From positions 3,968,001 through 4,032,000 of the forward strand of contig NZ_CP139148.1 of the NCBI RefSeq assembly GCF_034058155.1: a DNA stretch of 64,000 nucleotides. Direction: 5' to 3'. This document shows, in pieces, positions 9,658 to 25,372 of this stretch. The position numbers were made by a program, and so were the translations under genes. The notes below the pieces were generated by a model. It saw only the letters and a list, made by a program, of their open reading frames with translations, ran no database searches and was not told the origin of the DNA. Position 1 is the first letter of the stretch. Every line of letters begins with the position of its first letter. Origin of the DNA: Flavobacterium sp. KACC 22761. GTDB taxonomy: Bacteria > Bacteroidota > Bacteroidia > Flavobacteriales > Flavobacteriaceae.

Positions 9658-9834
9658 CCCCTAATCTGATACATTTAATTGATTTATACATGATTTTAAG
9701 TATTTTAAATGTTTAAAACAAAAAAAGACAACCTTCGGGTTGTCCTCTTTTAATTTGAAAATTATAATTTATCGTCCATTTTGTAGGGCTTAAAGACGTG
9801 TTTTTTATAAAAACCCCTAATCTGAAACGTGACC
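9658..9834 (-). repeat. R-element, transposase-linked copy
   Basis: Homologous to the R2-to-R1 part of the 263-bp Rhs-spacer repeat, but with a diverged R2 side. R2 (GTATCAGATTAGGGG on the minus strand) abuts the transposase ATG. A hairpin GACAACC-TTCG-GGTTGTC lies at 9727-9744, and R1 is at 9814-9834. It lacks the ~90 bp that elsewhere lead from R2 into the Rhs core; the transposase gene takes that place. Confidence 0.8.
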
Positions 9835-9965
9835 TTTTAAACGGCTAAAAACAAAAAAGACAACCCGAAGGTTGTCTTTTTTTTAAATTGAAATTTTATT
9901 TTATCGTCCATTTTGTTGGGCTTAAAGGCTTGTTTTTATAAAAACCCCTAATCTGAAACGTGACC
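9835..9965 (-). repeat. R-element, partial copy (R1 end kept)
   Basis: 131 bp beginning abruptly in the TTTTAAACGGCTAAAAAC stretch of the repeat, directly after the R1 of the neighbouring copy. Hairpin at 9859-9876; R1 at 9945-9965. R2 and the core-proximal part are missing. R1 cuts into the Rhs core stub. Confidence 0.8.
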
Positions 9966-10852
9966 CTGTTTAAGCAATAAATATACGGACTAATACTTGG
10001 ATATTTCTCCGCCAGCGGATCAACAGAAGTCCAAACAGAAATTTTAGGATCATAATATCTTGCACCGTAATAATACAAGCCTGTCTCCTTGTCTAACTCT
10101 TTACCATTAAACAAATAAGGCGTATTCCACTTAGCATTTTTCTCTTCCAAGAAAACCTCCCCAAAAGGTACGTATTCTATATGCTGAACAACTTCGCCGT
10201 CTAAATTAGTGATATATGACGAACTTCCCAAATGGTCAGGATGGTAATAAAACTGCTGCAACTCAGAATTGTCGTTTTTAGCAGTTTTAGCAGTAGAACT
10301 GCTCGCGCTTGCACTTTGAGATGGATTACAGCAGAAACCAAGTCCATTTACATAGTCATTATTATCAACGCCATAATAAGGAACGTCAAATGATTCGTAA
10401 TTAGCTTTAGTGATTTCCAGCGCTTTCTTGTATTTAGCATCATAATTTACCTTCACTCCAGAGAAAGATTCTCCCGCTTTCTCTACTCTTCTAGGATCTG
10501 CTCCATAAGAATCAAAATCACCAAGTTTACTAACGATACGTTGCGAACCAATGTAAATGTGTTTCGTATAACGACCGCCATTCTGAGCCACCAAATAAGG
10601 ATTCACATAAAGTGTAAAATCTGAAGTAGAAGTTTTTCCACCAGCAAAAACTGAATTTACGAATATACCCTGACCGCCACCTGAAAGTTTCGTTACTCTT
10701 TCTCCTCCAGCATCATAGGTGTAATTAGAAACATAGCCGTTAATGTCAATTGCCTGCAATCTATTCTCTTCATCCCAAAGCATCTTTTTCTCCAAAGCTT
10801 TTTCAGCAATCTGACCGTCTATTTTTACTTCTTCCGTATTTACGTAAATCAT
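9896..10852 (-). pseudogene. Orphan Rhs core stub, toxin domain lost
   Basis: The open frame of 318 residues repeats the last ~300 residues of the Rhs core (from NMIYVNTEE to SPYIYCLN). It stops being Rhs at about 9965, where R1 interrupts it just before the usual NPI-x-FIDPDG hinge. The last ~24 codons (VTFQIRGFYKNK...) are simply the repeat read in frame. No toxin tail and no immunity gene remain. Homology upstream of the ATG continues to 10896, where the core begins at GACAAGCAG after an R-element. This looks like a cassette from which the C-terminus and immunity gene were removed when the adjoining R1-ended segment arrived. Confidence 0.85.
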
Positions 10853-10896
10853 ATTTCCGTTGGCATCATAAACATATTTGTTGTTTTTCTGCTTAT

Positions 10897-11158
10897 CGTT
10901 TCAAATATTACAATTCCTTTCTAATTTTTTAAGTCCTAAAAGATTTATTTCAAACACAATAAGCCAAGAAAAAGCATGTTTTCACACCCTATTCTGATAA
11001 ACTTAATTCATTTTTATTTGATTTTGTGCTTTTTAAACAGCTAAAAACAAAAAAGACAACCTTCGGGTTGTCTTTTTTTTAAATTGAAATTATATTTATC
11101 TGTTATTTTTCAGGGCTTAAAGGCTTATTTTTATAAAATCCTAATCTGAAACGTGACC
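10897..11158 (-). repeat. R-element, full copy 1 (262 bp)
   Basis: The core-side end (CGTTTCAAATATT on the plus strand) joins the Rhs core; a degenerate R2 lies near 10987-11003, a terminator hairpin at 11055-11072, and R1 at 11139-11158. A 35-bp scrap ending in another R1 follows. Confidence 0.85.
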
Positions 11159-11193
11159 TGTTTTTAGAAAAAAACCTAATCTGAAACGTGACC
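11159..11193 (-). repeat. R1-ended scrap (35 bp)
   Basis: Only the R1 end and a few bases of the element survive (R1 at 11174-11193). It lies 2 bp from the stop codon of the neighbouring immunity gene. Confidence 0.7.
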
Positions 11194-11195
11194 AC

Positions 11196-11798
11196 TTAAT
11201 TTCCTAAACTTTCATCTGGGTAATTCTTAATAGATTCCTTTAAAATTCCTTCGTAAAATAATTCTGAATAATCTTTATTTGTAGCCTTCATACTATCAAT
11301 TTCTTTCAAGGCATTTTTTTTACCTTTCAAAAACATTTTCATAGAAAAATAATCTGCATAAAGTAAGGAATCCCTTGGTGTTTTTTTTAGAGAATCTTTA
11401 ATTCTGTCAATATTCTCATAAATATAAGAGTTAGCTTCTCTTTTGTTTTTTTTGTTGATTTTCAGAAACTTAACTATATTTAAAGTATTCACTCTGTTGT
11501 ATTCGTTAATAGTATTGTTTTTCGACAACAATTGCTCCAGTTCATCATACTTTTTTAGATTCAACAATAATGATATTATTGGTAAGGAATTGTTTCCGGA
11601 CAGTCCAATTTCTACATAATCTTTATTATACTTAAGTTCTTCATAAGCGCTATTCAAAATTCTTTTGTCTTTAGTTTGAAAATATTCTCTAATGCTTTTA
11701 TTTAATAATACATTTAGATCTTGATTTGAGATATCCTTTTTTTGGTTAGTACATGATAAAAAGAATAAAAAACTTATTGCTATCGTGAAAATTCTCAT
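11196..11798 (-). CDS. Lipoprotein, putative immunity protein of the 11.8-13.5 kb Rhs module
   Basis: 200 residues. The N-terminus MRIFTIAISFLFFLSCTN is a lipoprotein signal with Cys at residue ~16. The rest is helical and charged (YEELKYNKDYVEIGL, LLLNLKKYDELEQLL), resembling a small repeat-type helical fold; no named family recognised. Its ATG overlaps the Rhs stop (ATGA), the classic tight coupling of a toxin and its immunity gene. The lipid anchor puts it in the periplasm or outer membrane, which suggests the paired toxin acts in the envelope. The gene seems complete: its stop is followed within 2 bp by R1. Confidence 0.75.
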   Translation of the reverse strand: MRIFTIAISFLFFLSCTNQKKDISNQDLNVLLNKSIREYFQTKDKRILNSAYEELKYNKDYVEIGLSGNNSLPIISLLLNLKKYDELEQLLSKNNTINEYNRVNTLNIVKFLKINKKNKREANSYIYENIDRIKDSLKKTPRDSLLYADYFSMKMFLKGKKNALKEIDSMKATNKDYSELFYEGILKESIKNYPDESLGN

Positions 11799-13467
11799 AA
11801 TTTATTAGGATTAATTAATATTGGCGCCGCTGTATTATTAAATTTAGCTGAAACATTCGTTTCGGTAGTATTGGGAAGTCCTAAGATTCCAGCAGCTCCT
11901 AAGAATGACATTGGAGTATTTCCATTTAAATATTGACCTGTAAAACTAAAATCAAGAATAAATGATTTCCCAAAATTCCTTTGTATTGAAGAACTGTTCC
12001 AATAACTATCAAATATTGTTGTTGCAACACCTCTACCTCCTTGTCTAAACTCGCCAAAACGACTAGCTTCGTGTGCTTTCATTTCATTACCTTGCAATTT
12101 CATATTATGAACAACTAAACTAATATCAATATCGGGATATGGCGCAACGATATCTCCAGAAACAGATGCACTTATATTTATCCCTTTAAAATCTTTACTT
12201 TTTACACTACCATCACTATTATATACAGTAGATATATCTGCAGAAAAACTTACAGTCAAAGTTGTATTAGTCATCATATTCATAAATGCCGCTCCTTTTG
12301 CTGAATGTGGATTATCAAAATCTGCTATTGAAATTAATCCAATATCTCGGCTACTATCGCTAATCGAATTAGTTCCAAATAAATTCATAACAATAGAATT
12401 ATTTTCTTTTCCAATATAAACGTAACCCTTTGGTGTATTAAATTTAGAAGTTACACCATTTTTCCATTCAAACTTGCCTGTCGTATTATTTTTTATCCAA
12501 TCTCTTCCATCTGGATCAATTAATTTAAGGGGATTATTGGCTACATAAATGTATGAAGAATATTCTGGATGTTTCTCTCTCTGCGGATCAACAGAAGCCC
12601 AAAGACTTAACTTTGAATCATAATACCTAGCTCCGTAGTAATAAAGTCCTGTTTCTCTATCTAATTCCTTAGACGTAAACAAATAAGGCGTATTCCACTT
12701 AGCATTCTTCTCTTCTAGGAAAACCTCTCCGAAAGGTACGTATTCTATATGCTGAACAACTTCGCCATCTAAGTTGCTAATATATGAAGAACTTCCCAAA
12801 TGATCCGGGTGGTAATAAAACTGTTGCAGTTCTGCGTTATCATTCTTAGCACTTTTGGCTGTCGTCGAGCTACTAGAAGAAGCATCCTGAGAAGGATTAC
12901 AGCAAAAACCAAGCCCATTCACATAGTCATTATTATCAACGCCATAATAAGGAACTTCAAATGCATCGTAATTTGCTTTAGTAATTTCTAGCGCTTTTTT
13001 GTATTTAGCATCATAATTTACTTTTACGCCTGAAAATGATTCGCCCGCTTTCTCAACACGTCTTGGGTCAGCTCCGTAAGAATCAAAATCTCCCAATTTT
13101 GAAACTATTCTTTGGCTTCCAATATAGATGTGTTTCGTATATCTTCCGCCGTTCTGTGCGACTAAATAAGGATTTACATATAATGTGAAATCTGAAGTCG
13201 ACGTTTTTCCTCCCGCAAATACAGAATTCACAAATATCCCTTGTCCTCCGCCTGAAAGCTTAGTTACACGCTCGCCTCCGGCGTCATAAGTATAATTGGA
13301 AACATATCCATTTATATCAATAGCTTGTAAACGATTTTCTTCATCCCATAAAAGTTTCTTTTCAAGCGCTTTTTCAGCAACTTTTCCATCAATTTTTGCT
13401 TCCTCAGTATTAACATAAACCTTGTTACCGTTCTTGTCGTAAGTGTATTTGTTGTCTTTTTGCTTGT
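11795..13467 (-). CDS. Orphan Rhs module with unrecognised C-terminal domain
   Basis: The Rhs core homology starts at about 13467 (DKQK) and is open throughout, but the usual ATG of the NMIYVN segment is changed (NKVYVN). The first in-frame alternative start is a GTG at 13231, so this copy may not be translated on its own. The core runs to IYVANNPLKLIDPDGRD, followed by a variable tail of ~240 residues (from GRDWIKNNTTGKFEWKNG to the end), rich in Asn, Ser and Thr, with HEASRFGEFRQGGRG in its second half. I recognise no toxin family; the pairing with a lipoprotein suggests an envelope target. It is an orphan: no N-terminal secretion part. Confidence 0.8.
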
Positions 13468-13731
13468 CGTTTCAAATATTGAAATTTAGATAGAACTTTT
13501 TAGGACCTAAAAGCTTTATTTAAAACACGATAAGCCAAGAAAAAACATGTTTTAATCCCCTATTCTGATACACTTAATTCATTTTTACTTGATTTTGTGC
13601 TTTTTAAACAGCTAAAAACAAAAAAGACAACCCGAAGGTTGTCTTTTTTTAAATTGAAATTACATTTTATCTGTTATTTTAAAGGGCTTGAGAGCTTGTT
13701 TTTATAAAACCCCCTATTCTGAAACGTGACC
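13468..13731 (-). repeat. R-element, full copy 2 (264 bp)
   Basis: R2 at 13557-13575, terminator hairpin at 13626-13643, R1 variant (CCCCTATTCTGAAAC...) at 13711-13731. It is nearly identical to copy 5 at 21827-22090, including the unusual AGAGCTTG and the ATT variant in R1. Confidence 0.88.
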
Positions 13732-13856
13732 AAAACCCCTAATCTGAAACGTGACCCGAAGGTTGTCCTCTTTTAATTTGAAATTATAATTTATCGTCCA
13801 TTTTTGTTGGGCTTAAAGGCTTCTTTTTATAAAAACCCCTAATCTGAAACGTGACC
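13732..13856 (-). repeat. Two R-element scraps in tandem
   Basis: A 25-bp scrap (13732-13756, nearly only R1) is followed by a 100-bp partial copy (13757-13856) that begins inside the hairpin (CGAAGGTTGTC) and ends with R1 at 13836-13856. Both keep R1 and lose the opposite end. The last R1 cuts the end of the next immunity gene. Confidence 0.8.
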
Positions 13857-14360
13857 TATATTATCTTCTTTTTCAAATCCATATAAATTACCACCATTGG
13901 CTGTACATCTTATAAAGATTTCTTTGGGGATACTATCTCTAAAACTAACAACTGTTGTTTGGTTACATGAAGCGTAATTCTCATCAAAAATTAAATTATC
14001 ATTTTCAAGCCGAGGTGTACTGACGGACCCTATATAATATTTTCCTAATTTTTCCCCACTACTACTATAAAGAGACAAATATGAATCAAGATGAGGGCTA
14101 TCAGTACCTGCCAGTCTATCATAATGCAATACCTTTACACCAGATTTTTTTAAAACTCCTATAAAAATAATATTATATTCCAGTGTTTCTTTTTTAGTAT
14201 TTGATTTTATAATATATTCTTGTAACACATTATTTTCACTCAAAACAAGCTCTTCTAATTTCGTTAAATAATCTTTTGTTTTTTGATTATTTTTAGGCTT
14301 ATTTTTACAACATAAAAAAATAGAAGTCATAATTACTAATAATATCCGTTTTAAGTTCAT
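13839..14360 (-). CDS. Lipoprotein, putative immunity to a lytic transglycosylase-type Rhs toxin (3' end altered)
   Basis: From the ATG at 14360 (MNLKRILLVIMTSIFLCCKN) this is a ~173-residue lipoprotein with the acylated Cys near residue 17-18. The frame extends upstream to 14417, but that start would overlap the Rhs gene and spoil the signal sequence. It lies 16 bp after the Rhs stop. The last residues, GHVSD, are encoded by R1 itself, so the natural C-terminus has been replaced. No known immunity family recognised. A periplasmic inhibitor fits the peptidoglycan-lytic domain of its partner. Confidence 0.75.
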   Translation of the reverse strand: MNLKRILLVIMTSIFLCCKNKPKNNQKTKDYLTKLEELVLSENNVLQEYIIKSNTKKETLEYNIIFIGVLKKSGVKVLHYDRLAGTDSPHLDSYLSLYSSSGEKLGKYYIGSVSTPRLENDNLIFDENYASCNQTTVVSFRDSIPKEIFIRCTANGGNLYGFEKEDNIGHVSD

Positions 14361-14376
14361 ATTGTATATTTTAAAA

Positions 14377-17300
14377 TTAATTAGATTCGTTAACCATTGA
14401 TTTAATATAATCTTCATACATAGATGGGGTTTTTCTATCTTCTTTTTTTATACCTTTTGAATTTTCGACTCCCCAGCCATTATAATTACCAGCAGCTCTA
14501 AACCAACCTTTAAAATTATAAGTTTTATTTCCAGTTTTTGTATCATAATCTATACCATCTCTAAATCCTTTTGTGGCCAAAAATCTAATCCCCAAATATA
14601 AAGATCGATTTGTATCAACATACTCATTTTTGGTTAAACCATAAGCAGCTTTATATGCGTCATAGTCACCTTTATTGTTTACAGTCATAATGTCTCCAAT
14701 CCCCCTAATTCCATTATGAGATTCTTGAATTGCCATAGCTTTTACAAGTGTTGGATCTAAGTCAGGAATCTTTAAAGATTCAGAAATTGGTATCGGTAGA
14801 CCTTTCTCCGTATAAAGTTGTAATAGACCAGCATTTTTTGTTTGATTAAACAGTCCAGTTCTAGCGGCTATAATATAATCATTTTCTTGGTAAGCTGCTC
14901 CTGTTGTATCTTCTCCTGTCTGTATTCTTTCTTTTATTACATTTGGCATAGGAACTTTACTAAAAGAAGTTTGTCTATCGTTTTTAGCAATATAAGTTTC
15001 AAAAATAGTTGTTGAAACTATCCTTTTACTTGTTATTTCATTACCATTAACATCAAAATAAACTATATCTTTTCCTTGTGGGTCTTTCAGAACGATAGGA
15101 TTATTGGCAACATAGCAATAAGGAGATATATTAGGATATTTCTCCGCCAGCGGATCAACAGATATAAAGATTCCCAACTTAGGATCCTGATATCTCGCCC
15201 CAAAATAATATAAACCTGTTTCTCTATCTAATTCCTTAGACGTAAACAAATAAGGCGTATTCCACTTGACATTCTTTTCCTCCAAGAAGACCTCCCCGAA
15301 AGGCACATATTCTACATGTTGAACAACTTCGCCGTCTAAATTAGTAATATATGAAGAACTTCCCAAATGGTCAGGATGATAATAGAATTGCTGTAACTCT
15401 GCATTGTCATTTTTCGCAGATTTAGCAGTAGAGCTACTAGCACTAGCATCCTGCGAAGGATTGCAACAAAAACCTAGACCATTTACATAATCATTATTAT
15501 CAACTCCATAATAAGGCACTTCAAATGCATCGTAATTTGCTTTAGTAATTTCTAGCGCTTTTTTGTATTTAGCATCATAATTCACTTTGACACCAGAGAA
15601 TGATTCTCCAGCTTTCTCCACACGTCTAGGATCTGCTCCATAAGAATCAAAATCTCCTAATTTTGAAACAATTCTCTGCGAACCAATATAAATGTGTTTC
15701 GTATAACGACCACCATTCTGAGCAACCAAATAAGGATTTACATACAGCGTAAAATCACTTGTAGATGTTTTCCCACCAGCAAAAACAGAATTCACAAAAA
15801 TACCTTGTCCTCCGCCTGAAAGTTTTGTTACACGTTCTCCGCCTGCATCGTAGGTGTAATTACTCACATAACCGTTTATGTCAATAGCTTGCAATCTATT
15901 CTCTTCGTCCCAAAGCATTTTTTTCTCTAATGCTTTTTCAGCAATCTGACCATCAATTTTGACTTCTTCCGTATTTACATAAATCATATTTCCGTTGGAA
16001 TCATAAACATATTTGTTGTCTTTCTGCTTGTCGACTTTCGGTTCTGTGTTTTTAGTTCTGTACTCCGTTTCAGTTACGTTGTCAAGCTGGTGTTTGTTGG
16101 TGCTGTTGTAATTGTAATTCATCGTATAACCGGCCTTCAGCGCACCTGCTTCGGTAACCTTATTCTGCGCAACGTTTTGTGTTTTACTCACAATATTGTG
16201 CAAATCGTCGTATTTCATTTCCAGATTATAATTTGCCGTTTTCTGGTCTGCTCCTGTGTAAACACCGCTGGCACTTGTAAGCTGGTACAAATTGTCGTAC
16301 GCATAATTATGCGCCATGATGCCACCCATTTTGTTGGTTACGCCTGCAGCGCTGTTGGTCACGCTCAGCACATTGCTTACTTTGTCGTATTGATACTTGT
16401 TGTTCATGAACATTCGCGGCGTGTTAACACCTTGATATCCTGTTCCTGAAGCTACGGTCATATTATCAAGCCTTCTTCTCAGTGGCTCATAATTGTATTT
16501 TGTTTCGGTTCCGTTGCAGTATTTTAAATAACTTCTCTGCTCAAATTTGTCGTAGCCAATTTTGTTTACATAATTGTAGCTGTAGGCTTTTTGGCCTGCA
16601 ACGGCCTGCAACAAGCCTCCTGAGTTATACGTATAACTTATCTTTTCCTGATCCGGATAAATCATTTCCTGCAGGCGGTTCCATGAATCGTATTTCCAGC
16701 TGGTGACATACGTTGCCACGGCAGAATTAGGCACAATAACCGTTCTTCTTATGCTTTCGATCTCGCCCATAACGCCATACGAAAACTCCTGTGCGCCTGT
16801 GGCGTCTTCCATCAAAATCAATCTTCCTTTGCGGTTCTGGCTTTCGTTTTTGGTGCCAAAAACATAACGTACATCATTCTGGGGATTTTCAGGATAATGA
16901 ATATTGGTCAGTCTGTTGTACTCGTATTCATAGGTTATCTTCTTGCTTTTGGCTTCCAGATTTGCTGTCTGTCTTTCCAGCAAATTCCCCAAAGCGTCAA
17001 ATTTGAAGGTGCTTTTTCCGGCATCGGGCTGGATGACCTGTATGCGCCTGTCGCCCATATCAAACGTGCTCTTGGTCTGCTGTCCCTGCGCATCGGTCAC
17101 CAGAATATTTCTTCCTATTCCGTCATAAGCAAACTGCGTTGCAACGCTGTTGGCGTCCAGAGTTTTCATGGTTAATCCTGAACCGTTGGCATAACTTGAA
17201 TTTATGTTGCCCAGCGCATCTGCAACTTCTGTTTTCAGCAGATCGCCTTCTATTGTATATTTCATTTGAGTTGCAGCACCATCCGGCAAAGTAGTCGTAA

Positions 17301-18504
17301 TGGGTCTGTCCAGAATATCATAAGTCGTTTTGGTTGGTTCAACCAAATCATAACTGTCCAAAAATTTATTCCAGTCTCCAAGTACCGAAGTCTGCGGGTA
17401 ATAGGCTTCTTTCACACGCCCGAAAGCGTCAAATTTTGCACGTCCTGAAACTATCATCACATCACTTTGCTGATCAGGCGTTTTATTATCGGTAATGGCT
17501 GCATCTTTCTTAATCTGAATGGCTCGTCCTATTCCGTCAACAAAAGTCACCGTTTCAATCGGGTCGTTCGGGTGCTGGGCGTCGAAATGGCTGGTTTTGG
17601 CATACGCTGTTCGGGTTATCTTTCCATCGGCCACAATTGTTTTTGGAAAATATTCCATCTGAATGGTGTACAATTGTCCCGTTGCGGCTTCTTTCGGCCC
17701 CTGAATTCTCGTGATGCGGCCAAGTTCGTCCAGTTCTTTTAGTACTACATAACCATTAATATCTTCGGTTTCCAGAGGAATTCCGTAACGCGTGTCATAT
17801 CTTCTGAAATAGCTTCTGTAATCAAAATTATCTGAGATTTCTTCTACATACATTTTGAGTTTATCATCGTAACGGTAATAGAAAGTAGGTCTTTCTCCTT
17901 TATAATTCTGTGGCAGATATTTTCGGGTTATATTTCCGTATTCATCATACATAAAACTTATAGAAGCCGATTCGAGGTCATTCACTTTTGACGAATAGTT
18001 TAATATCTGGTTGTACTCCATATCCATCTGAACAGCAACATCCTTGACAATCTGCCCTCCTGTAGTAACCCTGTATATATAAGGAACCCCGATGATATGC
18101 TTCGCTAAGTTCGATTTATACATCAAATCTGTTGTATAGCTTCCGGTGCTGTTGTCTTTAAAATTGTAGGTTCTCAGATTCCCAAACTCTCCTTTGCTTA
18201 CATAATAATCATAATTTACTTCGCTTAGCTGAAGCGGGTTTCTGCCTCCCTCATAAGCAAATGAAACTTCTTTTTTGACAGGAGTAAAACTCACGCCGCG
18301 GTCTGAGCATATTTTGGTTACGGGACTAAAACTATATTCGTCTCCTGATGCTTTTACCGAATATGTATAATAGTTCTGCGTGCTTTCTGTAAATTTTTCT
18401 CCAGCATTTGTCTGCGCATCTGTCCCTTCATTGCTCGCCAAAACAGAACTTACTAATTGTCCGGCATTGTAATAATCGGATACATCGTAGTTTTGGGTTA
18501 GCAT
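14377..18504 (-). CDS. Long orphan Rhs/YD-repeat protein with lytic-transglycosylase-like C-terminus
   Basis: 1375 residues, starting at MLTQNYDVSDYYNAG, which equals about residue 1955 of the 3325-residue protein at 25373-35350. It therefore lacks the signal peptide, SpvB and FG-GAP regions, but has all YD repeats and the Rhs core (YCYVANNPIVLKDPQGKD). The variable tail (~260 residues) contains DPTLVKAMAIQES, GIGDIMTV, NRSLYLGIRFLATK and GWFRAAGNYNGWG. These match in order the SLT-type motifs: catalytic Glu in QES, GLMQ-like, N-x-x-x-G-x-YL and AYN-G. I call a peptidoglycan-cleaving toxin with moderate confidence. The partner gene is a lipoprotein. Without a signal peptide this copy is unlikely to be exported by itself. 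Confidence 0.85.
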   Translation of the reverse strand: MLTQNYDVSDYYNAGQLVSSVLASNEGTDAQTNAGEKFTESTQNYYTYSVKASGDEYSFSPVTKICSDRGVSFTPVKKEVSFAYEGGRNPLQLSEVNYDYYVSKGEFGNLRTYNFKDNSTGSYTTDLMYKSNLAKHIIGVPYIYRVTTGGQIVKDVAVQMDMEYNQILNYSSKVNDLESASISFMYDEYGNITRKYLPQNYKGERPTFYYRYDDKLKMYVEEISDNFDYRSYFRRYDTRYGIPLETEDINGYVVLKELDELGRITRIQGPKEAATGQLYTIQMEYFPKTIVADGKITRTAYAKTSHFDAQHPNDPIETVTFVDGIGRAIQIKKDAAITDNKTPDQQSDVMIVSGRAKFDAFGRVKEAYYPQTSVLGDWNKFLDSYDLVEPTKTTYDILDRPITTTLPDGAATQMKYTIEGDLLKTEVADALGNINSSYANGSGLTMKTLDANSVATQFAYDGIGRNILVTDAQGQQTKSTFDMGDRRIQVIQPDAGKSTFKFDALGNLLERQTANLEAKSKKITYEYEYNRLTNIHYPENPQNDVRYVFGTKNESQNRKGRLILMEDATGAQEFSYGVMGEIESIRRTVIVPNSAVATYVTSWKYDSWNRLQEMIYPDQEKISYTYNSGGLLQAVAGQKAYSYNYVNKIGYDKFEQRSYLKYCNGTETKYNYEPLRRRLDNMTVASGTGYQGVNTPRMFMNNKYQYDKVSNVLSVTNSAAGVTNKMGGIMAHNYAYDNLYQLTSASGVYTGADQKTANYNLEMKYDDLHNIVSKTQNVAQNKVTEAGALKAGYTMNYNYNSTNKHQLDNVTETEYRTKNTEPKVDKQKDNKYVYDSNGNMIYVNTEEVKIDGQIAEKALEKKMLWDEENRLQAIDINGYVSNYTYDAGGERVTKLSGGGQGIFVNSVFAGGKTSTSDFTLYVNPYLVAQNGGRYTKHIYIGSQRIVSKLGDFDSYGADPRRVEKAGESFSGVKVNYDAKYKKALEITKANYDAFEVPYYGVDNNDYVNGLGFCCNPSQDASASSSTAKSAKNDNAELQQFYYHPDHLGSSSYITNLDGEVVQHVEYVPFGEVFLEEKNVKWNTPYLFTSKELDRETGLYYFGARYQDPKLGIFISVDPLAEKYPNISPYCYVANNPIVLKDPQGKDIVYFDVNGNEITSKRIVSTTIFETYIAKNDRQTSFSKVPMPNVIKERIQTGEDTTGAAYQENDYIIAARTGLFNQTKNAGLLQLYTEKGLPIPISESLKIPDLDPTLVKAMAIQESHNGIRGIGDIMTVNNKGDYDAYKAAYGLTKNEYVDTNRSLYLGIRFLATKGFRDGIDYDTKTGNKTYNFKGWFRAAGNYNGWGVENSKGIKKEDRKTPSMYEDYIKSMVNESN

Positions 18505-18684
18505 TGTTTTTTTATTTAACTGTTTTTATTTTTTTGAAGCAGAAAATTCACGTTTTCAAAACAAGTTTAGTCCCGCTATCCGCTGTATCTTTTGTAGCGA
18601 ACCCCGCTACAAAAGGATGCCGCTTCTATCGGGGCTAGACTAGAAGTTTTCAGTTTTTTCGATTACGCTTGTTTCAAAAAAACT
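18505..18684. other. Leader of the long orphan, with a palindromic repeat
   Basis: The only orphan preceded by unique DNA. It contains the palindrome at 18569-18637, and TTTTCAGTTTTTTC at 18647-18660, also found upstream of another orphan at 24067-24080. No TAnnTTTG promoter found on the minus strand. Confidence 0.5.
18569..18637. repeat. Palindromic intergenic repeat with an 11-bp perfect inner stem
   Basis: The inner stem CTTTTGTAGCG / CGCTACAAAAG with a 5-nt loop is nested in an imperfect outer stem (GTCCCGCTATCC... against ...TCTATCGGGGCT). It is more GC-rich than its surroundings. From memory, hairpins containing GCCCCGATAGAAGCGG are dispersed in flavobacterial genomes, so I read it as a REP-like repeat and not a module-specific signal. 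Confidence 0.65.
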
Positions 18685-18947
18685 TTTCAAAAATTGCAAT
18701 TCCTTTCTAAATTTTTGAGCCCTAAAAGCTTTATTTCAAACACAATAAGCCTAGAAAAAACATGTTTTTACCCCCTATTCTGATACACTTATTTCATTTT
18801 TATTTGATTTTGTGCTTTTTAAACGGCTAAAAACAAAAAAGACAACCCGAAGGTTGTCTTTTTTTTAAATTGAAATTTTATTTTATCGTCCATTTTGTTG
18901 GGCTTAAAGGCTTGTTTTTATAAAAACCCCTAATCTGAAACGTGACC
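18685..18947 (-). repeat. R-element, full copy 3 (263 bp)
   Basis: R2 at 18772-18790, terminator hairpin at 18841-18858, R1 at 18927-18947, 2 bp from the stop codon of the Imm52-like gene. Its core-side end does not join the Rhs core directly but continues into the leader of the long orphan. Confidence 0.85.
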
Positions 18948-18949
18948 CC

Positions 18950-19429
18950 TCACTCCATTAAATCTAATTCAATATCTGTTGTATTCCATATTTCTTTTAT
19001 CAATTTTATAATATTTTCAATTCTTTGATCATTTTTATTTATTCTTAATTCTTGCGAAATAGGGAGAGAAACAATTACCCTATTTCTTAAATTTTTATTA
19101 TCTGAAATCAAACCAATTTTAAAACTTATTTGTGCACCATAAAGATTACTATCTTTTCCTGACCAAAAAGTAAAGTAACTCCCTAATTCTTGATTTTTTT
19201 TATCCCATGCTTTTTCAACAACTTTTTGAATGAATTCTTTTTCAAATACGACTTTTTTTTCTAAAGCTTCTTTTTTTGACCATCCTTGCTCAAACCAATT
19301 AGAGAATAAATCCTCATCTATTTGTTTTAAGGATTCCAAAAAAAATACAACTCTATTAGATAAACTATCAATACCCTCTGTTTTTTTAGGTATGAATCCT
19401 CTTATGTTTTCTACAAATTCAATTTTCAT
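18950..19429 (-). CDS. Imm52-like immunity protein
   Basis: 159 residues, no signal peptide, so cytosolic. The sequence resembles the Imm52 family: a helical N-terminal half with DEDLFSNWFEQGWSKKEAL, then GSYFTFWSGKDSNLYGAQISFKIG, and a NRVIVSLP strand. Imm52 proteins are known partners of Tox-REase-5 nucleases, and the upstream Rhs tail looks like exactly that, which supports both calls. The ATG is 2 bp after the Rhs stop. It is complete: its stop lies 2 bp before R1. Family assignment is by eye. Confidence 0.75.
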   Translation of the reverse strand: MKIEFVENIRGFIPKKTEGIDSLSNRVVFFLESLKQIDEDLFSNWFEQGWSKKEALEKKVVFEKEFIQKVVEKAWDKKNQELGSYFTFWSGKDSNLYGAQISFKIGLISDNKNLRNRVIVSLPISQELRINKNDQRIENIIKLIKEIWNTTDIELDLME

Positions 19430-19431
19430 TT

Positions 19432-21126
19432 TTAATTTGGTTTATATATCAATTCTATTCCTTTAATTCCTTCTTTTTTAAATAACTTTTGAGTAGCTTC
19501 CATTACTGATTTGTTTTCAAAAAACCATTGTATTTTAGTGCCATTCGCAGCTCCTATCTGTCTTTCAGCCTGCTCAATCATTTTTCTGCCACCTGTGAAC
19601 CATGGCTTAAAGCTTCCTGTAGCCTTATCAACGAAATTGCCCATTCCTGATTTTGCATCTTGTAAAATACCATTTGAAAATCCATCAAATTTAACACCTT
19701 TTAACAAAAATGATTTATTTGCCGCTTGACCAGTAATTGAAGTTTGATATTTTGCAGCTGCTGCACTCATGTTTTCTGTAGTTTCTATCCAAGCTCCACC
19801 TTTAATAGTTCCTGAACCAAATGGAGTTTTTATATATTTTGCGCCAGCTCCAATTACTGCTCCAATCGAAAAATCTATTAATAAGTCTGCTGCTGTGGTT
19901 TCTTTATCTTGAATAGCTCTATTTACTGTGCCTCCAATGGCATTTGCACTACCAGCGACACCAGCGGTTACCGCCAAACTTGCTCCTCCTGTAAATCCTG
20001 CTGCCCCACCTACAATAGCTCCTTGTAATGCTGAACCACCTACGGCTTTCCAATTGTTTACCTTTCCATTTCTGTATAATTGTGTTCCTGCTTCTATAGC
20101 CCCTCCAATTATACCTCCAATTACTGCTCCAGCAGCTGCAGTTACACAATTTGGACATTCGCCATTTGGATCAACATAAACTATTGGACTATTATATGAA
20201 AATGAATAAGATGATAAATTATGTGAATTATAAACACCTCCATTAGTAAACTCAGGATTTTCATATATCTCTTCACGTAACAAAATAGGATCAACAGAAG
20301 TCCAAATAGAAATCTTTGGATCATAATATCTCGCACCGTAATAATAAAGTCCTGTTTCTCTATCTAATTCCTTAGACGTAAACAAATAAGGCGTATTCCA
20401 CTTAGCATTCTTCTCTTCTAGGAAAACCTCTCCGAAAGGTACGTATTCTATATGCTGAACAACTTCGCCATCTAAGTTGCTAATATATGAAGAACTTCCC
20501 AAATGATCCGGGTGGTAATAAAACTGTTGCAGTTCTGCGTTATCATTCTTAGCACTTTTGGCTGTCGTCGAGCTACTAGAAGAAGCATCCTGAGAAGGAT
20601 TACAGCAAAAACCAAGCCCATTCACATAGTCATTATTATCAACGCCATAATAAGGAACGTCAAATGAATCGTAATTAGCTTTTGTTATTTCTAGCGCCTT
20701 TTTATACTTTGCATCATAATTTACTTTCAGTCCAGAGAAAGATTCTCCTGCTTTCTCTACTCTGCGTGGATCTGCTCCGTAGGAATCAAAATCTCCCAAT
20801 TTACTCACGATACGTTGCGAACCAATGTAAATATGTTTTGTGTATCGTCCGCCATTTTGAGCAACCAAATAAGGGTTCACATATAACGTAAAATCACTCG
20901 TTGAAGTTTTTCCACCGGCAAAAACTGAGTTTACAAAAATACCCTGCCCACCGCCAGACAATTTGGTTACTCGTTCTCCGCCGGCATCATAAGTGTAATT
21001 GCTCACGTAACCATTTATATCAATAGCCTGCAAACGGTTTTCTTCGTCCCAAAGCATCTTTTTCTCTAATGCTTTTTCTGCAATCTGACAGTCTATTTTT
21101 ACTTCTTCCGTATTTACGTAAATCAT
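19432..21126 (-). CDS. Orphan Rhs module with Tox-REase-5-like nuclease tail
   Basis: 564 residues from the ATG of the NMIYVN segment; Rhs homology reaches upstream to 21170. Core of ~290 residues to YNSPIVYVDPNGE, then a glycine/alanine-rich helix-forming pretoxin stretch (AAAGAVIGGIIGGAIEAG; AIVGGAAGFTGGASLA), then a ~110-residue domain: KYQTSITGQAANKSFLLKG, FDGFSNGILQDAKSGMG, MIEQAERQIGAANGTKIQWFFE. The D...DAK and QA-RQ...W-F pattern matches the restriction-endonuclease-fold toxin Tox-REase-5, so DNA cleavage is the predicted activity. No N-terminal delivery part, hence an orphan. The partner is Imm52-like and cytosolic, consistent with a DNase. Confidence 0.85.
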   Translation of the reverse strand: MIYVNTEEVKIDCQIAEKALEKKMLWDEENRLQAIDINGYVSNYTYDAGGERVTKLSGGGQGIFVNSVFAGGKTSTSDFTLYVNPYLVAQNGGRYTKHIYIGSQRIVSKLGDFDSYGADPRRVEKAGESFSGLKVNYDAKYKKALEITKANYDSFDVPYYGVDNNDYVNGLGFCCNPSQDASSSSSTTAKSAKNDNAELQQFYYHPDHLGSSSYISNLDGEVVQHIEYVPFGEVFLEEKNAKWNTPYLFTSKELDRETGLYYYGARYYDPKISIWTSVDPILLREEIYENPEFTNGGVYNSHNLSSYSFSYNSPIVYVDPNGECPNCVTAAAGAVIGGIIGGAIEAGTQLYRNGKVNNWKAVGGSALQGAIVGGAAGFTGGASLAVTAGVAGSANAIGGTVNRAIQDKETTAADLLIDFSIGAVIGAGAKYIKTPFGSGTIKGGAWIETTENMSAAAAKYQTSITGQAANKSFLLKGVKFDGFSNGILQDAKSGMGNFVDKATGSFKPWFTGGRKMIEQAERQIGAANGTKIQWFFENKSVMEATQKLFKKEGIKGIELIYKPN

Positions 21127-21170
21127 ATTTCCGTTGGCATCATAAACATATTTGTTATTTTTCTGTTTGT

Positions 21171-21432
21171 CATTTCAAAAATTGCAATTCCTTTCTGAAC
21201 TTTTAAGTCCTAAAAGCTTTATTTCAAACATAATAAGCCAAGAAAAAGCATGTTTTCATCCCCTATTCTGATACACTTAATTCATTTTTACTTGATTTTG
21301 TGCTTTTTAAACAGCTAAAAACAAAAAAGACAACCCGAAGGTTGTCTTTTTTTAAATTGAAATTATATTTATCTGTTATTTTTTGGGCTTAAAGGCTTCT
21401 TTTTATAAAAACCCCTAATCTGAAACGTGACC
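21171..21432 (-). repeat. R-element, full copy 4 (262 bp)
   Basis: The core-side end reads CATTTCAAAAATTGC; R2 at 21260-21278, terminator hairpin at 21329-21346, R1 at 21412-21432. R1 cuts into the middle of an Rhs core (at DSYG). Confidence 0.87.
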
Positions 21433-21782
21433 CCATAGGAATCAAAATCTCCTAATTTAGAAACAATTCTCTGCGAACCAATATAAATGTGTTTCGTATA
21501 TCTTCCGCCATTCTGTGCCACTAGATAAGGATTCACATACAAAGTAAAATCACTTGTAGATGTTTTTCCTCCTGCAAAAACTGAGTTTACAAATATACCC
21601 TGACCGCCACCTGAAAGTTTCGTTACTCTTTCTCCTCCAGCATCATAGGTGTAATTGCTCACGTAACCATTTATGTCAATAGCTTGCAGACGATTTTCTT
21701 CATCCCAAAGCATCTTTTTCTCTAATGCTTTTTCTGCAATTTTTCCATCAATTTTTACTTCCTCGGTATTTACATAAATCAT
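21369..21782 (-). pseudogene. Orphan Rhs core stub truncated in mid-core
   Basis: The first ~115 residues of the module core (MIYVNTEE to KLGDFDSYG) survive. At 21433 R1 takes over, and the frame runs through the repeat as VTFQIRGFYKKKP to a stop. About 180 residues of core, the toxin tail and any immunity gene are gone. Rhs homology extends upstream to 21826. Confidence 0.85.
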
Positions 21783-21826
21783 GTTACCGTTCTTGTCGAA
21801 AGTGTATTTGTTGTCTTTCTGCTTGT

Positions 21827-22090
21827 CGTTTCAAATATTGAAATTTAGCTAGAACTTTTTAGGACCTAAAAGCTTTATTTAAAACACGATAAGCCAAGAA
21901 AAAACATGTTTTCATCCCCTATTATGATACACTTAATTCATTTTTACTTGATTTTGTACTTTTTAAACAGCTAAAAACAAAAAAGACAATCCGAAGGTTG
22001 TCTTTTTTTAAATTGAAATTACATTTTATCTGTTATTTTAAAGGGCTTGAGAGCTTGTTTTTATAAAACCCCCTATTCTGAAACGTGACC
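21827..22090 (-). repeat. R-element, full copy 5 (264 bp)
   Basis: R2 (CCCCTATTATGATAC on the plus strand) at 21916-21934, hairpin with one mismatch (GACAATCC...) at 21985-22002, R1 variant at 22070-22090. It is the twin of copy 2. R1 cuts the end of the membrane immunity gene. Confidence 0.87.
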
Positions 22091-22479
22091 ATATTTTTAT
22101 CAGTTTTTTGATTTAATATTTTTTCTCTATTAAGGTTTGCTATCAGAATGAAAAATAGTGCGGTCGCAATTATAAATATTATTACTAAAACGCCTCCTTT
22201 TATATCCTTTCTAAAATCACATTCTAAGAACTCTTCTTTTCTAACAATTCCATAATAATTAAATATCCAAATAAGAATCATAAATACAACAATATAGGAT
22301 TTACTGAGAGCAAAGGGAAACATATTTAAATATTCAAAAATAAAATAAATAGTCATTAAATTGACACTTATTAGAACTGTACTAACGAATGAAGCTGAAA
22401 GACTATAATTGCCTTTCTCTTTTATAGTGTCTTTATAGAACATATAAATTCTAAACAATAAGTAGTAATAGGTTTTCAT
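22033..22479 (-). CDS. Multi-pass membrane protein, putative immunity to a pore-forming Rhs toxin (3' end altered)
   Basis: The genuine part (~129 residues, 22091-22479) has about four hydrophobic segments: SLSASFVSTVLISVNLMTIYF, a following FPFALSKSYIVVFMILIWIF, and GGVLVIIFIIATALFFILIA. The sequence after DKNM is the R-element read in frame (VTFQNRGFYKNK), so the natural C-terminus is lost or replaced. The start is 6 bp after the Rhs stop. Small integral membrane immunity proteins are typical for pore-forming bacteriocins, which fits the hydrophobic end of the paired Rhs tail. No family recognised. Confidence 0.7.
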   Translation of the reverse strand: MKTYYYLLFRIYMFYKDTIKEKGNYSLSASFVSTVLISVNLMTIYFIFEYLNMFPFALSKSYIVVFMILIWIFNYYGIVRKEEFLECDFRKDIKGGVLVIIFIIATALFFILIANLNREKILNQKTDKNMVTFQNRGFYKNKLSSPLK

Positions 22480-22485
22480 AATTTA

Positions 22486-24048
22486 TTATTGTGGTTTTTC
22501 AAATAAAGTATTTCCTGAAGAATATTCATAAATTGTCTTGCCAACAAAATATGTTAAACTTACAGTTGCTCCTATAGGCCCCATAAAACCTATAGCTCCC
22601 ATAGTTGCATCGACACTAGCTTCTCTACCAGTAATTTGACCAGTAGCATATTGATATCCTGTTAATCCCATTCCAAAGCCTCCTAAAACTTTACTACCAA
22701 TACCTGCGCCACTAGCTAGTTTATTCATACGAGCCGTATTCTGAAGAGTTAATTCAACAGCACTAGCTTCAGCACTACCGTATTTATAAATTGTTTGAGA
22801 ATTTGCTTTAGCAAAGTCTGTTAAAGCTTCAGCATAAACATTTAGAGCAAGAGCACCAGTACCTAATGCACTTACATCTAAAGGTTGTTCACTTGTACTA
22901 GTAGGATTATCTTGACTAACAGTATTATCTTTACCTACTTGTGCAAATATAAGTTCTTCATGCCATGACTTATCTGCATACAAATTTACAGTTGTTCCTC
23001 GCTCAGAAGTATATGCCACATCCTTACCAAGATAGGTCTCTCCAGATTTTGTTGTGGCTTGTGATGTTGCATTATTATCCCAATAAACACTGTTATCTGC
23101 CCTAGCTACCCAATCAGGAGGAGAAGCTATCATCCCGTTAGGGTCAATAAAATAAACTGGATTATTAAGTGCATACGCATAAGAACTAACTCCTGGATAT
23201 TTTAGTGCCATTGGATCAACAGATATAAATATTCCGAGCTTCGGGTCTTGGTAACGTGCACCAAAATAATATAAACCTGTTTCTCTATCTAATTCCTTAG
23301 AAGTAAACAAATAAGGTGTATTCCACTTCGCATTCTTCTCTTCCAAGAATACTTCCCCAAAAGGAACGTACTCAATATGCTGTACAACCTCTCCATCTAA
23401 GTTGCTAATGTACGAAGAACTTCCCAAATGATCAGGATGATAATAAAACTGTTGCAGTTCTGCGTTATCGTTCTTTGCAGATTTAGCAGTAGAACTGCTG
23501 GCACTTGCACTTTGTGAAGGATTACAGCAGAATCCTAAGCCATTCACATAATCGTTATTATCAACGCCATAATAAGGAACTTCAAAGCTATCATAGTTTG
23601 CTTTAGTAATCTCTAGCGCTTTCTTGTATTTAGCGTCATAATTCACTTTTACTCCAGAGAAGGATTCCCCAGCTTTCTCCACTCTTCTAGGATCAGCTCC
23701 GTAACTATCAAAATCACCAAGTTTAGAAACAATTCTTTGTGAGCCGATATAAATATGCTTGGTATATCTACCACCATTCTGCGCTACTAAGTATGGATTC
23801 ACATAAAGTGTAAAATCACTTGTAGATGTTTTTCCTCCTGCAAAAACTGAATTTACAAATATTCCCTGTCCACCACCTGAAAGTTTCGTTACTCTTTCTC
23901 CTCCAGCATCATAGGTGTAATTAGAAACATATCCATTTATATCAATAGCCTGCAATCTATTTTCTTCGTCCCAAAGCAATTTCTTTTCTAACGCTTTTTC
24001 TGCAACCTGACCGTCTATTTTTACTTCCTCGGTATTGACGTAAATCAT
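22486..24048 (-). CDS. Orphan Rhs module with a hydrophobic, possibly pore-forming tail
   Basis: 520 residues from the NMIYVN-type ATG. The core ends at YALNNPVYFIDPNGM. The ~230-residue tail begins polar (ASPPDWVARADNSVYWDNN) and ends with two glycine-rich hydrophobic segments: GAGIGSKVLGGFGMGLTG and, after a short charged turn (TGREASVD), GAIGFMGPIGATVSLTYFVG. A terminal hydrophobic hairpin plus a multi-pass membrane immunity protein is the arrangement known from pore-forming colicins; this is analogy, not a family match. Unlike most orphans its 5' junction lies at GNM, slightly downstream of the usual GACAAGCAG junction, with a foreign ~55-bp leader. Confidence 0.8.
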   Translation of the reverse strand: MIYVNTEEVKIDGQVAEKALEKKLLWDEENRLQAIDINGYVSNYTYDAGGERVTKLSGGGQGIFVNSVFAGGKTSTSDFTLYVNPYLVAQNGGRYTKHIYIGSQRIVSKLGDFDSYGADPRRVEKAGESFSGVKVNYDAKYKKALEITKANYDSFEVPYYGVDNNDYVNGLGFCCNPSQSASASSSTAKSAKNDNAELQQFYYHPDHLGSSSYISNLDGEVVQHIEYVPFGEVFLEEKNAKWNTPYLFTSKELDRETGLYYFGARYQDPKLGIFISVDPMALKYPGVSSYAYALNNPVYFIDPNGMIASPPDWVARADNSVYWDNNATSQATTKSGETYLGKDVAYTSERGTTVNLYADKSWHEELIFAQVGKDNTVSQDNPTSTSEQPLDVSALGTGALALNVYAEALTDFAKANSQTIYKYGSAEASAVELTLQNTARMNKLASGAGIGSKVLGGFGMGLTGYQYATGQITGREASVDATMGAIGFMGPIGATVSLTYFVGKTIYEYSSGNTLFEKPQ

Positions 24049-24105
24049 GTTTCCATTGGCAACGATTTTTCAGTTTTTTCAAAGACTCCTATTTCAATAA
24101 TGAAA

Positions 24106-24368
24106 CGTTCAAATATTTAAATTTACCTACAATTTTTTTGGACCTAAAAGCTTTATTTCAAACACAATAAGCCAAGAAAAGCATGTTTTCATCCCCTATT
24201 CTGATACACTTAATTCATTTTTATTAGATTTTATGCTTTTTAAACAGCTAAAAACAAAAAAGACAACCCGAAGGTTGTCCTTATTTAATTTGAAAATTAT
24301 AATTTATCACCCATTTTGTTGGGCTTAAAAGCTTGTTTTTATAAAAAACCCTAATCTGAAACGTGACC
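24106..24368 (-). repeat. R-element, full copy 6 (263 bp)
   Basis: R2 at 24194-24212, hairpin at 24262-24279, R1 at 24348-24368. On the core side, 24049-24105 is a leader sharing TTTTCAGTTTTTTC with the leader of the long orphan. R1 cuts into a tiny Rhs core remnant. Confidence 0.85.
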
Positions 24369-24456
24369 ACCTGACCATCAATTTTTACTTCCTCGGTATT
24401 GACATAAATCATGTTGCCATTGGCATCATAAACATATTTGTTGTTTTTCTGTTTAT
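24369..24456 (-). pseudogene. Minimal Rhs core remnant (88 bp)
   Basis: It encodes only DKQKNNKYVYDANGNMIYVN and a few more residues of the module start, up to KIDGQ, then is cut by R1. It lies between two full R-elements. It is the extreme case of the stub series (88 bp here, ~395 bp at 21433-21826, ~930 bp at 9966-10896). Confidence 0.8.
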
Positions 24457-24720
24457 CGTTTCAAATGTTGAAATTTATATAGAGTTTTTTAGGACCTAAA
24501 AGCCTTATTTCAAACATAATAAGCCAAGAAAAAACATGTTTTCATCCCCTATTCTGATACACTTAATTCATTTTTACTTGATTTTGTGCTTTTTAAACGG
24601 CTAAAAACAAAAAAGACAACCCGAAGGTTGTCTTTTTTTTAAATTGAAATTATATTTATCTGTTATTTTTCAGGGCTTAAAGGCTTCTTTTTATAAAAAC
24701 CCCTAATCTGAAACGTGACC
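24457..24720 (-). repeat. R-element, full copy 7 (264 bp)
   Basis: R2 at 24546-24564, hairpin at 24615-24632, R1 at 24700-24720. Two R1-ended partial copies follow directly. Confidence 0.87.
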
Positions 24721-24870
24721 CCCTAAGGTTGTCTTTTTTTAATTTGAAAATTTTAATTTATCTCTTATTTTTCGGGGCTTTAAGGCTTATTTTTATAAAA
24801 ACCCCTAATCTGAAACGTGACCGGGCTTAAAGGCTTGTTTTTATAAAAACCCCTAATCTGAAACGTGACC
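24721..24870 (-). repeat. Two nested partial R-elements (102 bp and 48 bp)
   Basis: 24721-24822 starts inside the hairpin and ends with R1 at 24802-24822. 24823-24870 starts at GGGCTTAAAGG and ends with R1 at 24850-24870. With copy 7 this gives three R1 ends in a row, each closer to the next. The outermost R1 cuts the end of the immunity gene of the complete Rhs protein. Confidence 0.85.
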
Positions 24871-25368: not shown

Positions 25369-25372
25369 AATA

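What the first reader, a model, noticed from the sequence alone, without database searches (positions are those of the whole stretch)
9658..24870. A ~263-bp repeat with one invariant end separates all Rhs modules, and all its partial copies are truncated from the same side
Seen directly: seven copies of 262-264 bp (10897-11158, 13468-13731, 18685-18947, 21171-21432, 21827-22090, 24106-24368, 24457-24720), one transposase-linked copy (9658-9834) and six partial copies (9835-9965, 11159-11193, 13732-13756, 13757-13856, 24721-24822, 24823-24870). All 14 end with R1, minus strand GGTCACGTTTCAGATTAGGG, and R1 joins a different sequence each time. The opposite end is constant in full copies and missing in every partial. 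One fixed end with variable breakpoints is not what homologous recombination alone leaves; it resembles one-ended insertion or processing at R1. I know of no described element of this kind, but I cannot search.
Basis: seen in the sequence. Interest (0 to 1): 0.82.

Follow-up and report, generated by a model that had tools for sequence, protein, structure and literature searches.

The report
One-ended jumping-gene remnants trimming toxin arrays
The repeat between the Rhs toxin modules is the left end of a jumping gene of the IS1 kind that keeps one fixed tip and shows no recognisable second tip, and it seems to reshape toxin arrays mainly by deleting whatever lies in front of that tip.

Summary
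In detail: 14 R1 copies, all on one strand, none elsewhere in the genome. R1 is not an unknown element. It is the terminal left end of an IS1-family element whose transposase is the window's own gene 8998-9657. A left-end profile built from relatives, without the window, matches every full copy from R1 to the transposase start codon. So the 263-bp unit is a left end of about 173 bp plus a spacer of about 88 bp. The one-sidedness holds for the family: of 103 distinct left-end pieces, 83 are intact, 18 lost the right side, 2 lost R1. No right inverted repeat or target duplication was found. The variable part of R1 instead covaries with a direct repeat at the transposase start codon. All six partial copies are abutted at their cut side by the next R1; three further R1s cut Rhs cores; five sit at stop codons of small co-directional genes. 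Best reading: deletions run outward from R1 (adjacent deletion), on top of recombination between Rhs cores. One locus (G083 against five relatives) fits loss of about 6 kb of Rhs sequence up to R1.

The parts
8998..9657 (-). IS1-family transposase, 219 aa, the only copy in the genome
   Evidence: NF033558 160.2 bits (cut-off 100), PF03400 and PF12759; single own-genome match; aligns end to end with five relatives
9658..9834 (-). complete left end of the transposase gene: R1, hairpin, inner direct repeat, then ATG
   Evidence: left-end profile without the window, positions 1-175, E 3.7e-16
9835..9965 (-). left-end piece, 131 bp, cut on the right by R1 at 9834; its own R1 cuts an Rhs core
   Evidence: profile 1-134
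10897..11158 (-). full unit: left end about 173 bp plus spacer of about 88 bp, then Rhs core
   Evidence: profile 1-175, E 9.3e-14
11159..11193 (-). left-end piece, 35 bp, cut by R1 at 11158; its R1 begins 2 bp after the stop codon of ORF 11196-11798
13468..13731 (-). full unit
   Evidence: profile 1-175, E 6.9e-18
13732..13756 (-). left-end piece, 25 bp, cut by R1 at 13731
13757..13856 (-). left-end piece, 100 bp, cut by R1 at 13756; its R1 supplies the stop codon of ORF 13839-14417
   Evidence: profile 1-110
18685..18947 (-). full unit upstream of the 1375-aa Rhs gene; right side continues beyond 263 bp; R1 begins 2 bp after the stop codon of ORF 18950-19429
   Evidence: profile 1-175, E 9.2e-19
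21171..21432 (-). full unit whose R1 cuts an Rhs core in mid-gene
   Evidence: profile 1-175, E 6.5e-18
21827..22090 (-). full unit; ORF 22033-22479 runs through its R1 and ends 58 bp inside the left end
   Evidence: profile 1-175, E 1.1e-14
24106..24368 (-). full unit with longer right side; R1 cuts an Rhs core 88 bp from its junction with the next unit
   Evidence: profile 1-175, E 2.2e-16
24457..24720 (-). full unit
   Evidence: profile 1-175, E 1.4e-21
24721..24822 (-). left-end piece, 102 bp, cut by R1 at 24720
   Evidence: profile 1-101
24823..24870 (-). left-end piece, 48 bp, cut by R1 at 24822; its R1 supplies the stop codon of ORF 24853-25383
   Evidence: profile 1-43, E 0.042
14377..18504 (-). 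1375-aa Rhs gene with its own start, inside the array
   Evidence: TIGR03696 68.3 bits; PF05593
25373..35350 (-). main 3325-aa Rhs gene at the head of the array
   Evidence: PF03534, PF12256, PF05593, PF13517

Best explanation
R1 is the terminal left end (begins GGT) of an IS1-family element for which only one end can be recognised. The left end is about 175 bp: R1, a covarying terminator-like hairpin, then a second, direct copy of the R1 motif at the transposase start codon. In this genome one copy has the transposase; seven others are left ends in which the transposase gene is absent and an 88-bp spacer leads on, in five directly and in a sixth after a longer stretch into an Rhs core fragment, in the seventh towards a complete Rhs gene. 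Rhs modules (core fragment, toxin end, small downstream gene) pile up head to tail, probably through homologous recombination between core fragments (inferred). Transposase acting at R1 joins it to a new site on its outer side in the same chromosome and the DNA in between is lost (adjacent deletion; inferred from anatomy and one partly syntenic locus). Where that site lies in the left end of the preceding unit, a right-truncated left-end piece abutted by a new R1 remains; where it lies in an Rhs core, a truncated module remains; deletions stop at the last gene that must be kept, so R1 ends up beside a stop codon. Shown: identity of R1, one-sidedness, abutment, co-direction. Inferred: transposase chemistry, use of the inner repeat as partner site, order of events.
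For: Transposase IS1 family. Same left-end layout in relatives: an R1-like motif lies ahead of the transposase gene, mostly 175-190 bp before its start codon, in 34 of 38 named loci; 3 others start at a contig edge and 1 (L089) lacks it. Window-free profile (63 sequences, 59 distinct) hits the transposase-linked and all seven full copies at 1-175. Distinct left-end pieces: 83 intact, 18 right-truncated, 2 R1-less, one of these 2 eight bases from a contig end. R1 variable part against own inner repeat 12.31 of 15 versus 9.91 for other copies, 0 of 2000 permutations as high; against an inverted match right of the transposase 8.98 versus 8.98 (42 copies). In the window 6 of 6 partial copies abut the next R1 and no same-strand left-end hit lacks R1. 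An R1-like motif lies within 175 bp outside R1, same orientation, at 21 of 89 relative sites (6.1 expected), inverted at 0. Nearest outer gene co-directional 55, opposite 5, none 8 of 68. G083: T2SSF gene, 27 bp, then R1-transposase-Rhs core end; in 5 of 5 orthologues at 89-93% identity with enough contig the gene is followed by long Rhs genes.
Against: No before-and-after pair of strains exists for the window. In G083 the earlier state is inferred; only the left side is syntenic: the tmRNA to the right of the G083 array was not seen in the stretches fetched from the five relatives, so a larger rearrangement is possible. In the one paper read on adjacent deletions, the 14 cases were IS150 and none of the 5 IS1 movements had one, and for IS903 both ends are said to be needed (PMC11708052); here no right end was found. 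Break points in the window favour the first 131 bp of left ends (6, against 3 in Rhs cores), which random deletion does not explain; target preference or selection must be added. R1-like motifs are common in these loci (6.8% of random 175-bp stretches), so some of the 21 nested cases may be chance. R1 and its inner repeat may covary in few independent events, since copies of one subtype are related. With the first profile one further piece (L068 7838) reads as lacking R1. Recombination after nested insertion can give the same products.
Confidence: 0.6

Rival explanations
1. One-ended insertion: R1 leads and a variable length of DNA to its right (transposase, linker, Rhs core, toxin end, small gene) is copied into a new place, as ISEcp1 does with alternative right ends.
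For: Fixed R1 with variable right limits in relatives; transposase-linker-Rhs-core junctions shared by several loci and species; Rhs modules linked to R1.
Against: No excess of target duplications within 12 kb to the right: 9-mers repeated at 18 of 127 sites against 23.75 in control. All 14 R1 copies of this genome are in one 15-kb place, not dispersed. No inverted nested pair (0 of 89).
Confidence: 0.2
2. Nested two-ended insertion of an ordinary IS or MITE, followed by homologous recombination between repeated right parts or Rhs cores that removed the older right halves.
For: Left ends of different subtypes are nested in one another in relatives; direct repeats of core and left end are abundant.
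Against: No right inverted repeat. 0 of 6 expected R1-less remainders in the window. Same orientation in every nested pair.
Confidence: 0.14
3. R1 is a recombination site of the Rhs system itself, unrelated to transposition.
For: Linkage to Rhs modules and to the 3' ends of the small genes after the toxins.
Against: The same left end precedes an IS1-family transposase in many species and also follows other genes, such as a T2SSF gene.
Confidence: 0.03

Closest known systems
IS1 family insertion sequences
   Same: Transposase family; end begins with GGT (that IS1 ends do so is recalled).
   Different: No right inverted repeat and no target duplication found; the partner motif is a direct repeat at the start codon; single open frame.
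Adjacent deletions by insertion sequences (PMC11708052, passages read)
   Same: IS end kept, neighbouring DNA lost, no target duplication.
   Different: Cases there are IS150 with complete IS copies; the 5 IS1 movements there had no large deletion.
ISEcp1 (IS1380 family) one-sided capture
   Same: One constant end, variable other limit, carries neighbouring genes (recalled; one search gave listings and abstract starts only).
   Different: Different transposase family; known for target duplications (recalled), which were not found here.
IS26 translocatable units and the B. thailandensis CDI composite transposon (PMC6350997, passages read)
   Same: Direct-orientation IS copies alternating with cargo, there including contact-dependent toxin genes.
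   Different: Those have complete IS copies and a shown circular intermediate; here copies are single left ends, mostly without transposase, and no intermediate was tested.
Sequential displacement of effector-immunity modules (V. cholerae T6SS, PMC5361080, search listing and abstract start only)
   Same: Arrays of displaced effector and immunity genes.
   Different: No IS end in what I saw of it; here each module is headed by one.
E. coli Rhs elements with H-repeat
   Same: An IS-like sequence linked to Rhs genes (recalled; listing only).
   Different: H-repeat belongs to another IS family and is not known as a one-ended boundary (both recalled).

Membership tests
IS1 family | IS1-type DDE transposase | tested here: met
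   NF033558 160.2 bits over cut-off 100; PF03400 79.2 bits
IS1 family | terminal GGT at the cut end | tested here: met
   14 of 14 R1 in the window and 98 of 100 distinct sites begin GGT; the seeds were chosen to begin GGT, so partly circular; that IS1 ends do so is recalled
IS1 family | inverted repeat at both ends | tested here: not met
   no inverted partner seen right of the transposase; no covariation there, p 0.57
IS1 family | 8-9 bp target duplication (recalled) | tested here: not met
   no excess of repeated flank 8- to 12-mers within 12 kb; could be erased by deletions
MITE | two fixed ends, dispersed in the genome | tested here: not met
   right limit varies; all copies in one locus
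ISEcp1-like one-sided transposition unit | fixed left end and variable right limit | tested here: met
ISEcp1-like one-sided transposition unit | target duplication around the whole unit (recalled) | tested here: not met
ISEcp1-like one-sided transposition unit | IS1380-family transposase | tested here: not met
   transposase is IS1 family
adjacent deletion by an IS end | IS end kept, neighbouring DNA lost from that end | tested here: inconclusive
   anatomy fits in the window and at G083; no before-and-after strains
IS26-like translocatable unit | circular intermediate with one IS copy and cargo | not testable with these tools
   needs wet-lab junction PCR or long reads

The most novel reading that the evidence does not exclude
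A Bacteroidota branch of the IS1 family works with a single terminal end whose partner is a direct repeat at its own start codon, not an inverted right end, and it serves as an array editor: R1-directed deletions trim Rhs toxin arrays one module at a time while leaving the next module capped by a hairpin terminator and often by a stop codon within R1.
Probability: 0.27. Interest if true: 0.8.

Novelty: new variant of a known kind. Interest (0 to 1): 0.58.

Why it matters
It names the repeat that punctuates an Rhs toxin array in Flavobacterium, gives a testable way for such arrays to shrink without leaving uncapped modules, and points to an IS1-family branch with only one recognisable end, which bears on how DDE transposases can act without an inverted partner.

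Tried and rejected
Ordinary MITE: rejected, right limit not fixed and no dispersal. R1 as an inner part of a longer element: rejected, no consensus outside R1 beyond a weak G. Target duplications: none in excess. Fixed alternative right end at transposase residues 106-121, suggested by several truncated copies: the break points and following sequences mostly differ, but L115 and L117, from two genomes, share a stretch after the break, and the two copies in L111 break alike. Terminator targeting: R1 often follows a stop codon and some flanks look like terminators, but T-rich last ten bases are not clearly enriched (20 of 68 against 16.3). Empty site for the F. soli copy behind a 622-aa outer-membrane-type gene (name by eye): orthologues too diverged downstream to use. 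tRNA genes as insertion sites: in 56 loci scanned, one complete tRNA lies right at an R1 (Prevotella, L092). Known RNA family for the repeat: at E up to 0.1 only Flavo-1 beside one copy and a weak MicX match over the 9835-9965 piece (25 bits, gathering 75). Papers: searches for Rhs with IS1 family, insertion sequence, transposase or toxin-immunity in Flavobacterium or Bacteroidetes listed no title on this. Searches found 0 papers; of the others only listings were seen; the library lacks most subscription journals, so this is weak evidence of absence.

The best explanation went from 0.62 to 0.60, nested insertion from 0.12 to 0.14 and the novel case from 0.28 to 0.27, because the right side of the G083 locus is not syntenic and the paper's IS1 events had no deletions.
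Full report
What is there. The R1 motif occurs 14 times in the window, all on the minus strand, with a shuffled mean of 0.00. In the own genome, 5.04 Mb in one contig, the 262-bp unit has 21 matches: 12 are array copies (the 25- and 35-bp pieces are too short to be found), 7 are the same copies read through their palindromic hairpin, and 2 elsewhere are 30 and 37 bp long. In 60 genomes searched with the unit (own included), matches outside the own genome are at most 91 bp. R1 with at most one mismatch is found in 1 of 398 genomes of the genus, this one. Reading on the minus strand, a unit begins at R1 and leads into an Rhs core fragment, then a toxin end, then a small gene, then the next R1, with several modules truncated.

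What R1 is. ORF 8998-9657 is an IS1-family transposase and the only one of its kind in this genome. Relatives at E up to 1e-20 occur in 50 of 298 other genus genomes searched and in 38 loci of named genomes and MAGs, among them Flavobacterium, Prevotella, Pedobacter, Leyella and Chitinophagaceae. In 34 of these 38 a GGT-terminal motif like R1 lies ahead of the transposase gene in the same orientation; in 3 the gene lies too near a contig end, and L089 lacks it. Between R1 and the start codon lie a hairpin and a second, direct copy of the motif. Contig G101:C1 and a named F. soli contig have the same length, so the genus is taken to be Flavobacterium. A profile made from 63 relative left ends (59 distinct), with the window left out, hits the transposase-linked copy and all seven full copies over positions 1-175, and three partial copies at 1-134, 1-110 and 1-101; the 48-bp piece scores weakly (E 0.042) and the 25- and 35-bp pieces did not score. 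The unit therefore consists of a left end of about 173 bp, ending after the inner repeat and, in most copies, a trace of the start codon (ATGAAAA), plus about 88 bp of unknown origin.

One end only. To the right of the transposase the sequence either diverges at once or continues as a linker into an Rhs core; I saw no inverted R1 there. In 42 complete copies the variable half of R1 matches its own inner repeat better than those of other copies (12.31 against 9.91 of 15; 0 of 2000 permutations reach it), while inverted matches on the right show nothing (8.98 against 8.98, p 0.57). Copies of one subtype are related, so the number of independent changes is smaller than 42; but a right inverted repeat would have profited from the same relatedness. 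Target duplications are not in excess (9-mers at 18 of 127 sites, control 23.75). Among distinct left-end pieces at E up to 1e-3 in the fetched loci and the window, 83 are intact, 18 kept R1 and lost the right side, and 2 lack R1, one of which begins eight bases from a contig end; 13 duplicates, 2 hairpin-only hits and 1 contig-edge hit were set aside, and three short window pieces fall below the threshold. With the first profile one more piece, in L068, reads as lacking R1.

The hairpin. In 30 left ends that I chose (27 relatives, 3 from the window), RNAalifold places one hairpin of 9 pairs between R1 and the inner repeat; all 9 pairs show changes on both sides in at least one sequence, while up to 10 of 30 rows break the outermost pair. 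It looks like a terminator; its function was not tested.

What R1 abuts. In the window six R1s abut the cut side of another left-end piece, three cut an Rhs core, and five lie at the 3' end of a small co-directional gene. One such gene, 13839-14417, takes its stop codon from R1; of its five relatives from other sources four end within a few residues of the same place and one runs about ten further, so R1 sits near the natural gene end. In relatives an R1-like motif lies within 175 bp outside R1 in the same orientation at 21 of 89 sites against 6.1 expected, and inverted at 0. An Rhs core lies within 3 kb outside R1 in the same orientation at 43 of 72 sites with enough sequence (32 of 61 without the window) and in the opposite orientation at 0; random positions in the same loci give 24%. 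At 20 of 25 Rhs-linked, non-nested relative sites with a nearby ORF the nearest stop codon lies between 79 bp before and 43 bp after the R1 start. The nearest outer ORF of at least 100 aa is co-directional at 55, opposite at 5, and absent at 8 of 68 sites. Sites without a near Rhs core exist too (29 of 61 relatives), for example behind the T2SSF gene of G083.

A partly syntenic test. In G083 a T2SSF gene (PF00482) is followed after 27 bp by R1, transposase, linker and an Rhs core end with an HNH-type end. In the five orthologues with 89-93% identity and enough contig (G006, G185, G267, G125, G102) the gene is followed by two long open frames, the second with an Rhs core about 6 kb beyond the gene; for G185 both carry RHS repeats. 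A sixth close orthologue, G208, ends 100 bp after the match and says nothing. Five more distant ones (62-73% identity) have other arrangements, two with the Rhs gene inverted and two with an R1-transposase copy on the opposite strand. The simplest reading is that G083 lost about 6 kb between the T2SSF gene and an R1 that formerly lay further right. Against this: the tmRNA to the right of the G083 array was not seen in the stretches fetched from the five relatives, and apart from the T2SSF gene the DNA similarity to G083 is confined to short core stretches of 35-233 bp in three of them. A larger rearrangement, or absence of the Rhs gene from the start, is not excluded.

Mechanism. Adjacent deletion from an IS end keeps that end and removes its neighbour; such deletions without target duplication are documented for IS150, while the 5 IS1 movements in the same study had none (PMC11708052, passages read). 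It accounts for the abutted partial copies, the cut Rhs cores, the missing remainders and the constant orientation. It does not by itself account for the many break points inside left ends, nor for how a transposase acts without a right end. The covarying inner repeat is the obvious candidate for the partner site, but that is inference. One-ended insertion and nested insertion followed by recombination remain possible with lower weight.

Novelty. The transposase is a known kind; the element fails two features of ordinary IS1 members (two inverted ends, target duplication). I therefore call it a new variant of a known kind. The closest comparisons are listed with what I saw of each paper.

Noticed in passing
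window 18565-18640 (-): A Flavo-1 RNA (RF01705, 79.7 bits) lies between the full unit at 18685-18947 and the start of the 1375-aa Rhs gene.
   Followed up: no
window 25373-35350 (-): The main 3325-aa Rhs gene combines SpvB, TcdB_toxin_midN, FG-GAP and RHS repeats; described only.
   Followed up: no
L176 (G239), about 10.6 kb beyond the T2SSF gene start: A 212-bp stretch there resembles the last part of the T2SSF gene of G033 (75%) and G251 (81%), as if an island with an inverted Rhs locus had entered at the gene's 3' end.
   Followed up: partly
L092 9739-9816: In Prevotella sp. 10(H) a tRNA-Asp gene ends at 9814 and R1 begins at 9816, one base between them.
   Followed up: no
L064, L065, L079, L103, right of the transposase: Short tRNA-like fragments (GGACTCGAACC or near it; likeness recalled) without a complete tRNA gene there (L103 itself was not in the tRNA scan).
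   Followed up: partly
L078 9225-9830 and 11948-12554: In F. endophyticum a stretch of about 606 bp ending in a left end is repeated at 90% identity; in one copy the left end is interrupted after 83 bp by another R1.
   Followed up: partly
L111, L059, L115, L117, L118: Several transposase copies are cut off between residues 106 and 121, mostly at different bases; L115 and L117 share sequence after the break.
   Followed up: partly
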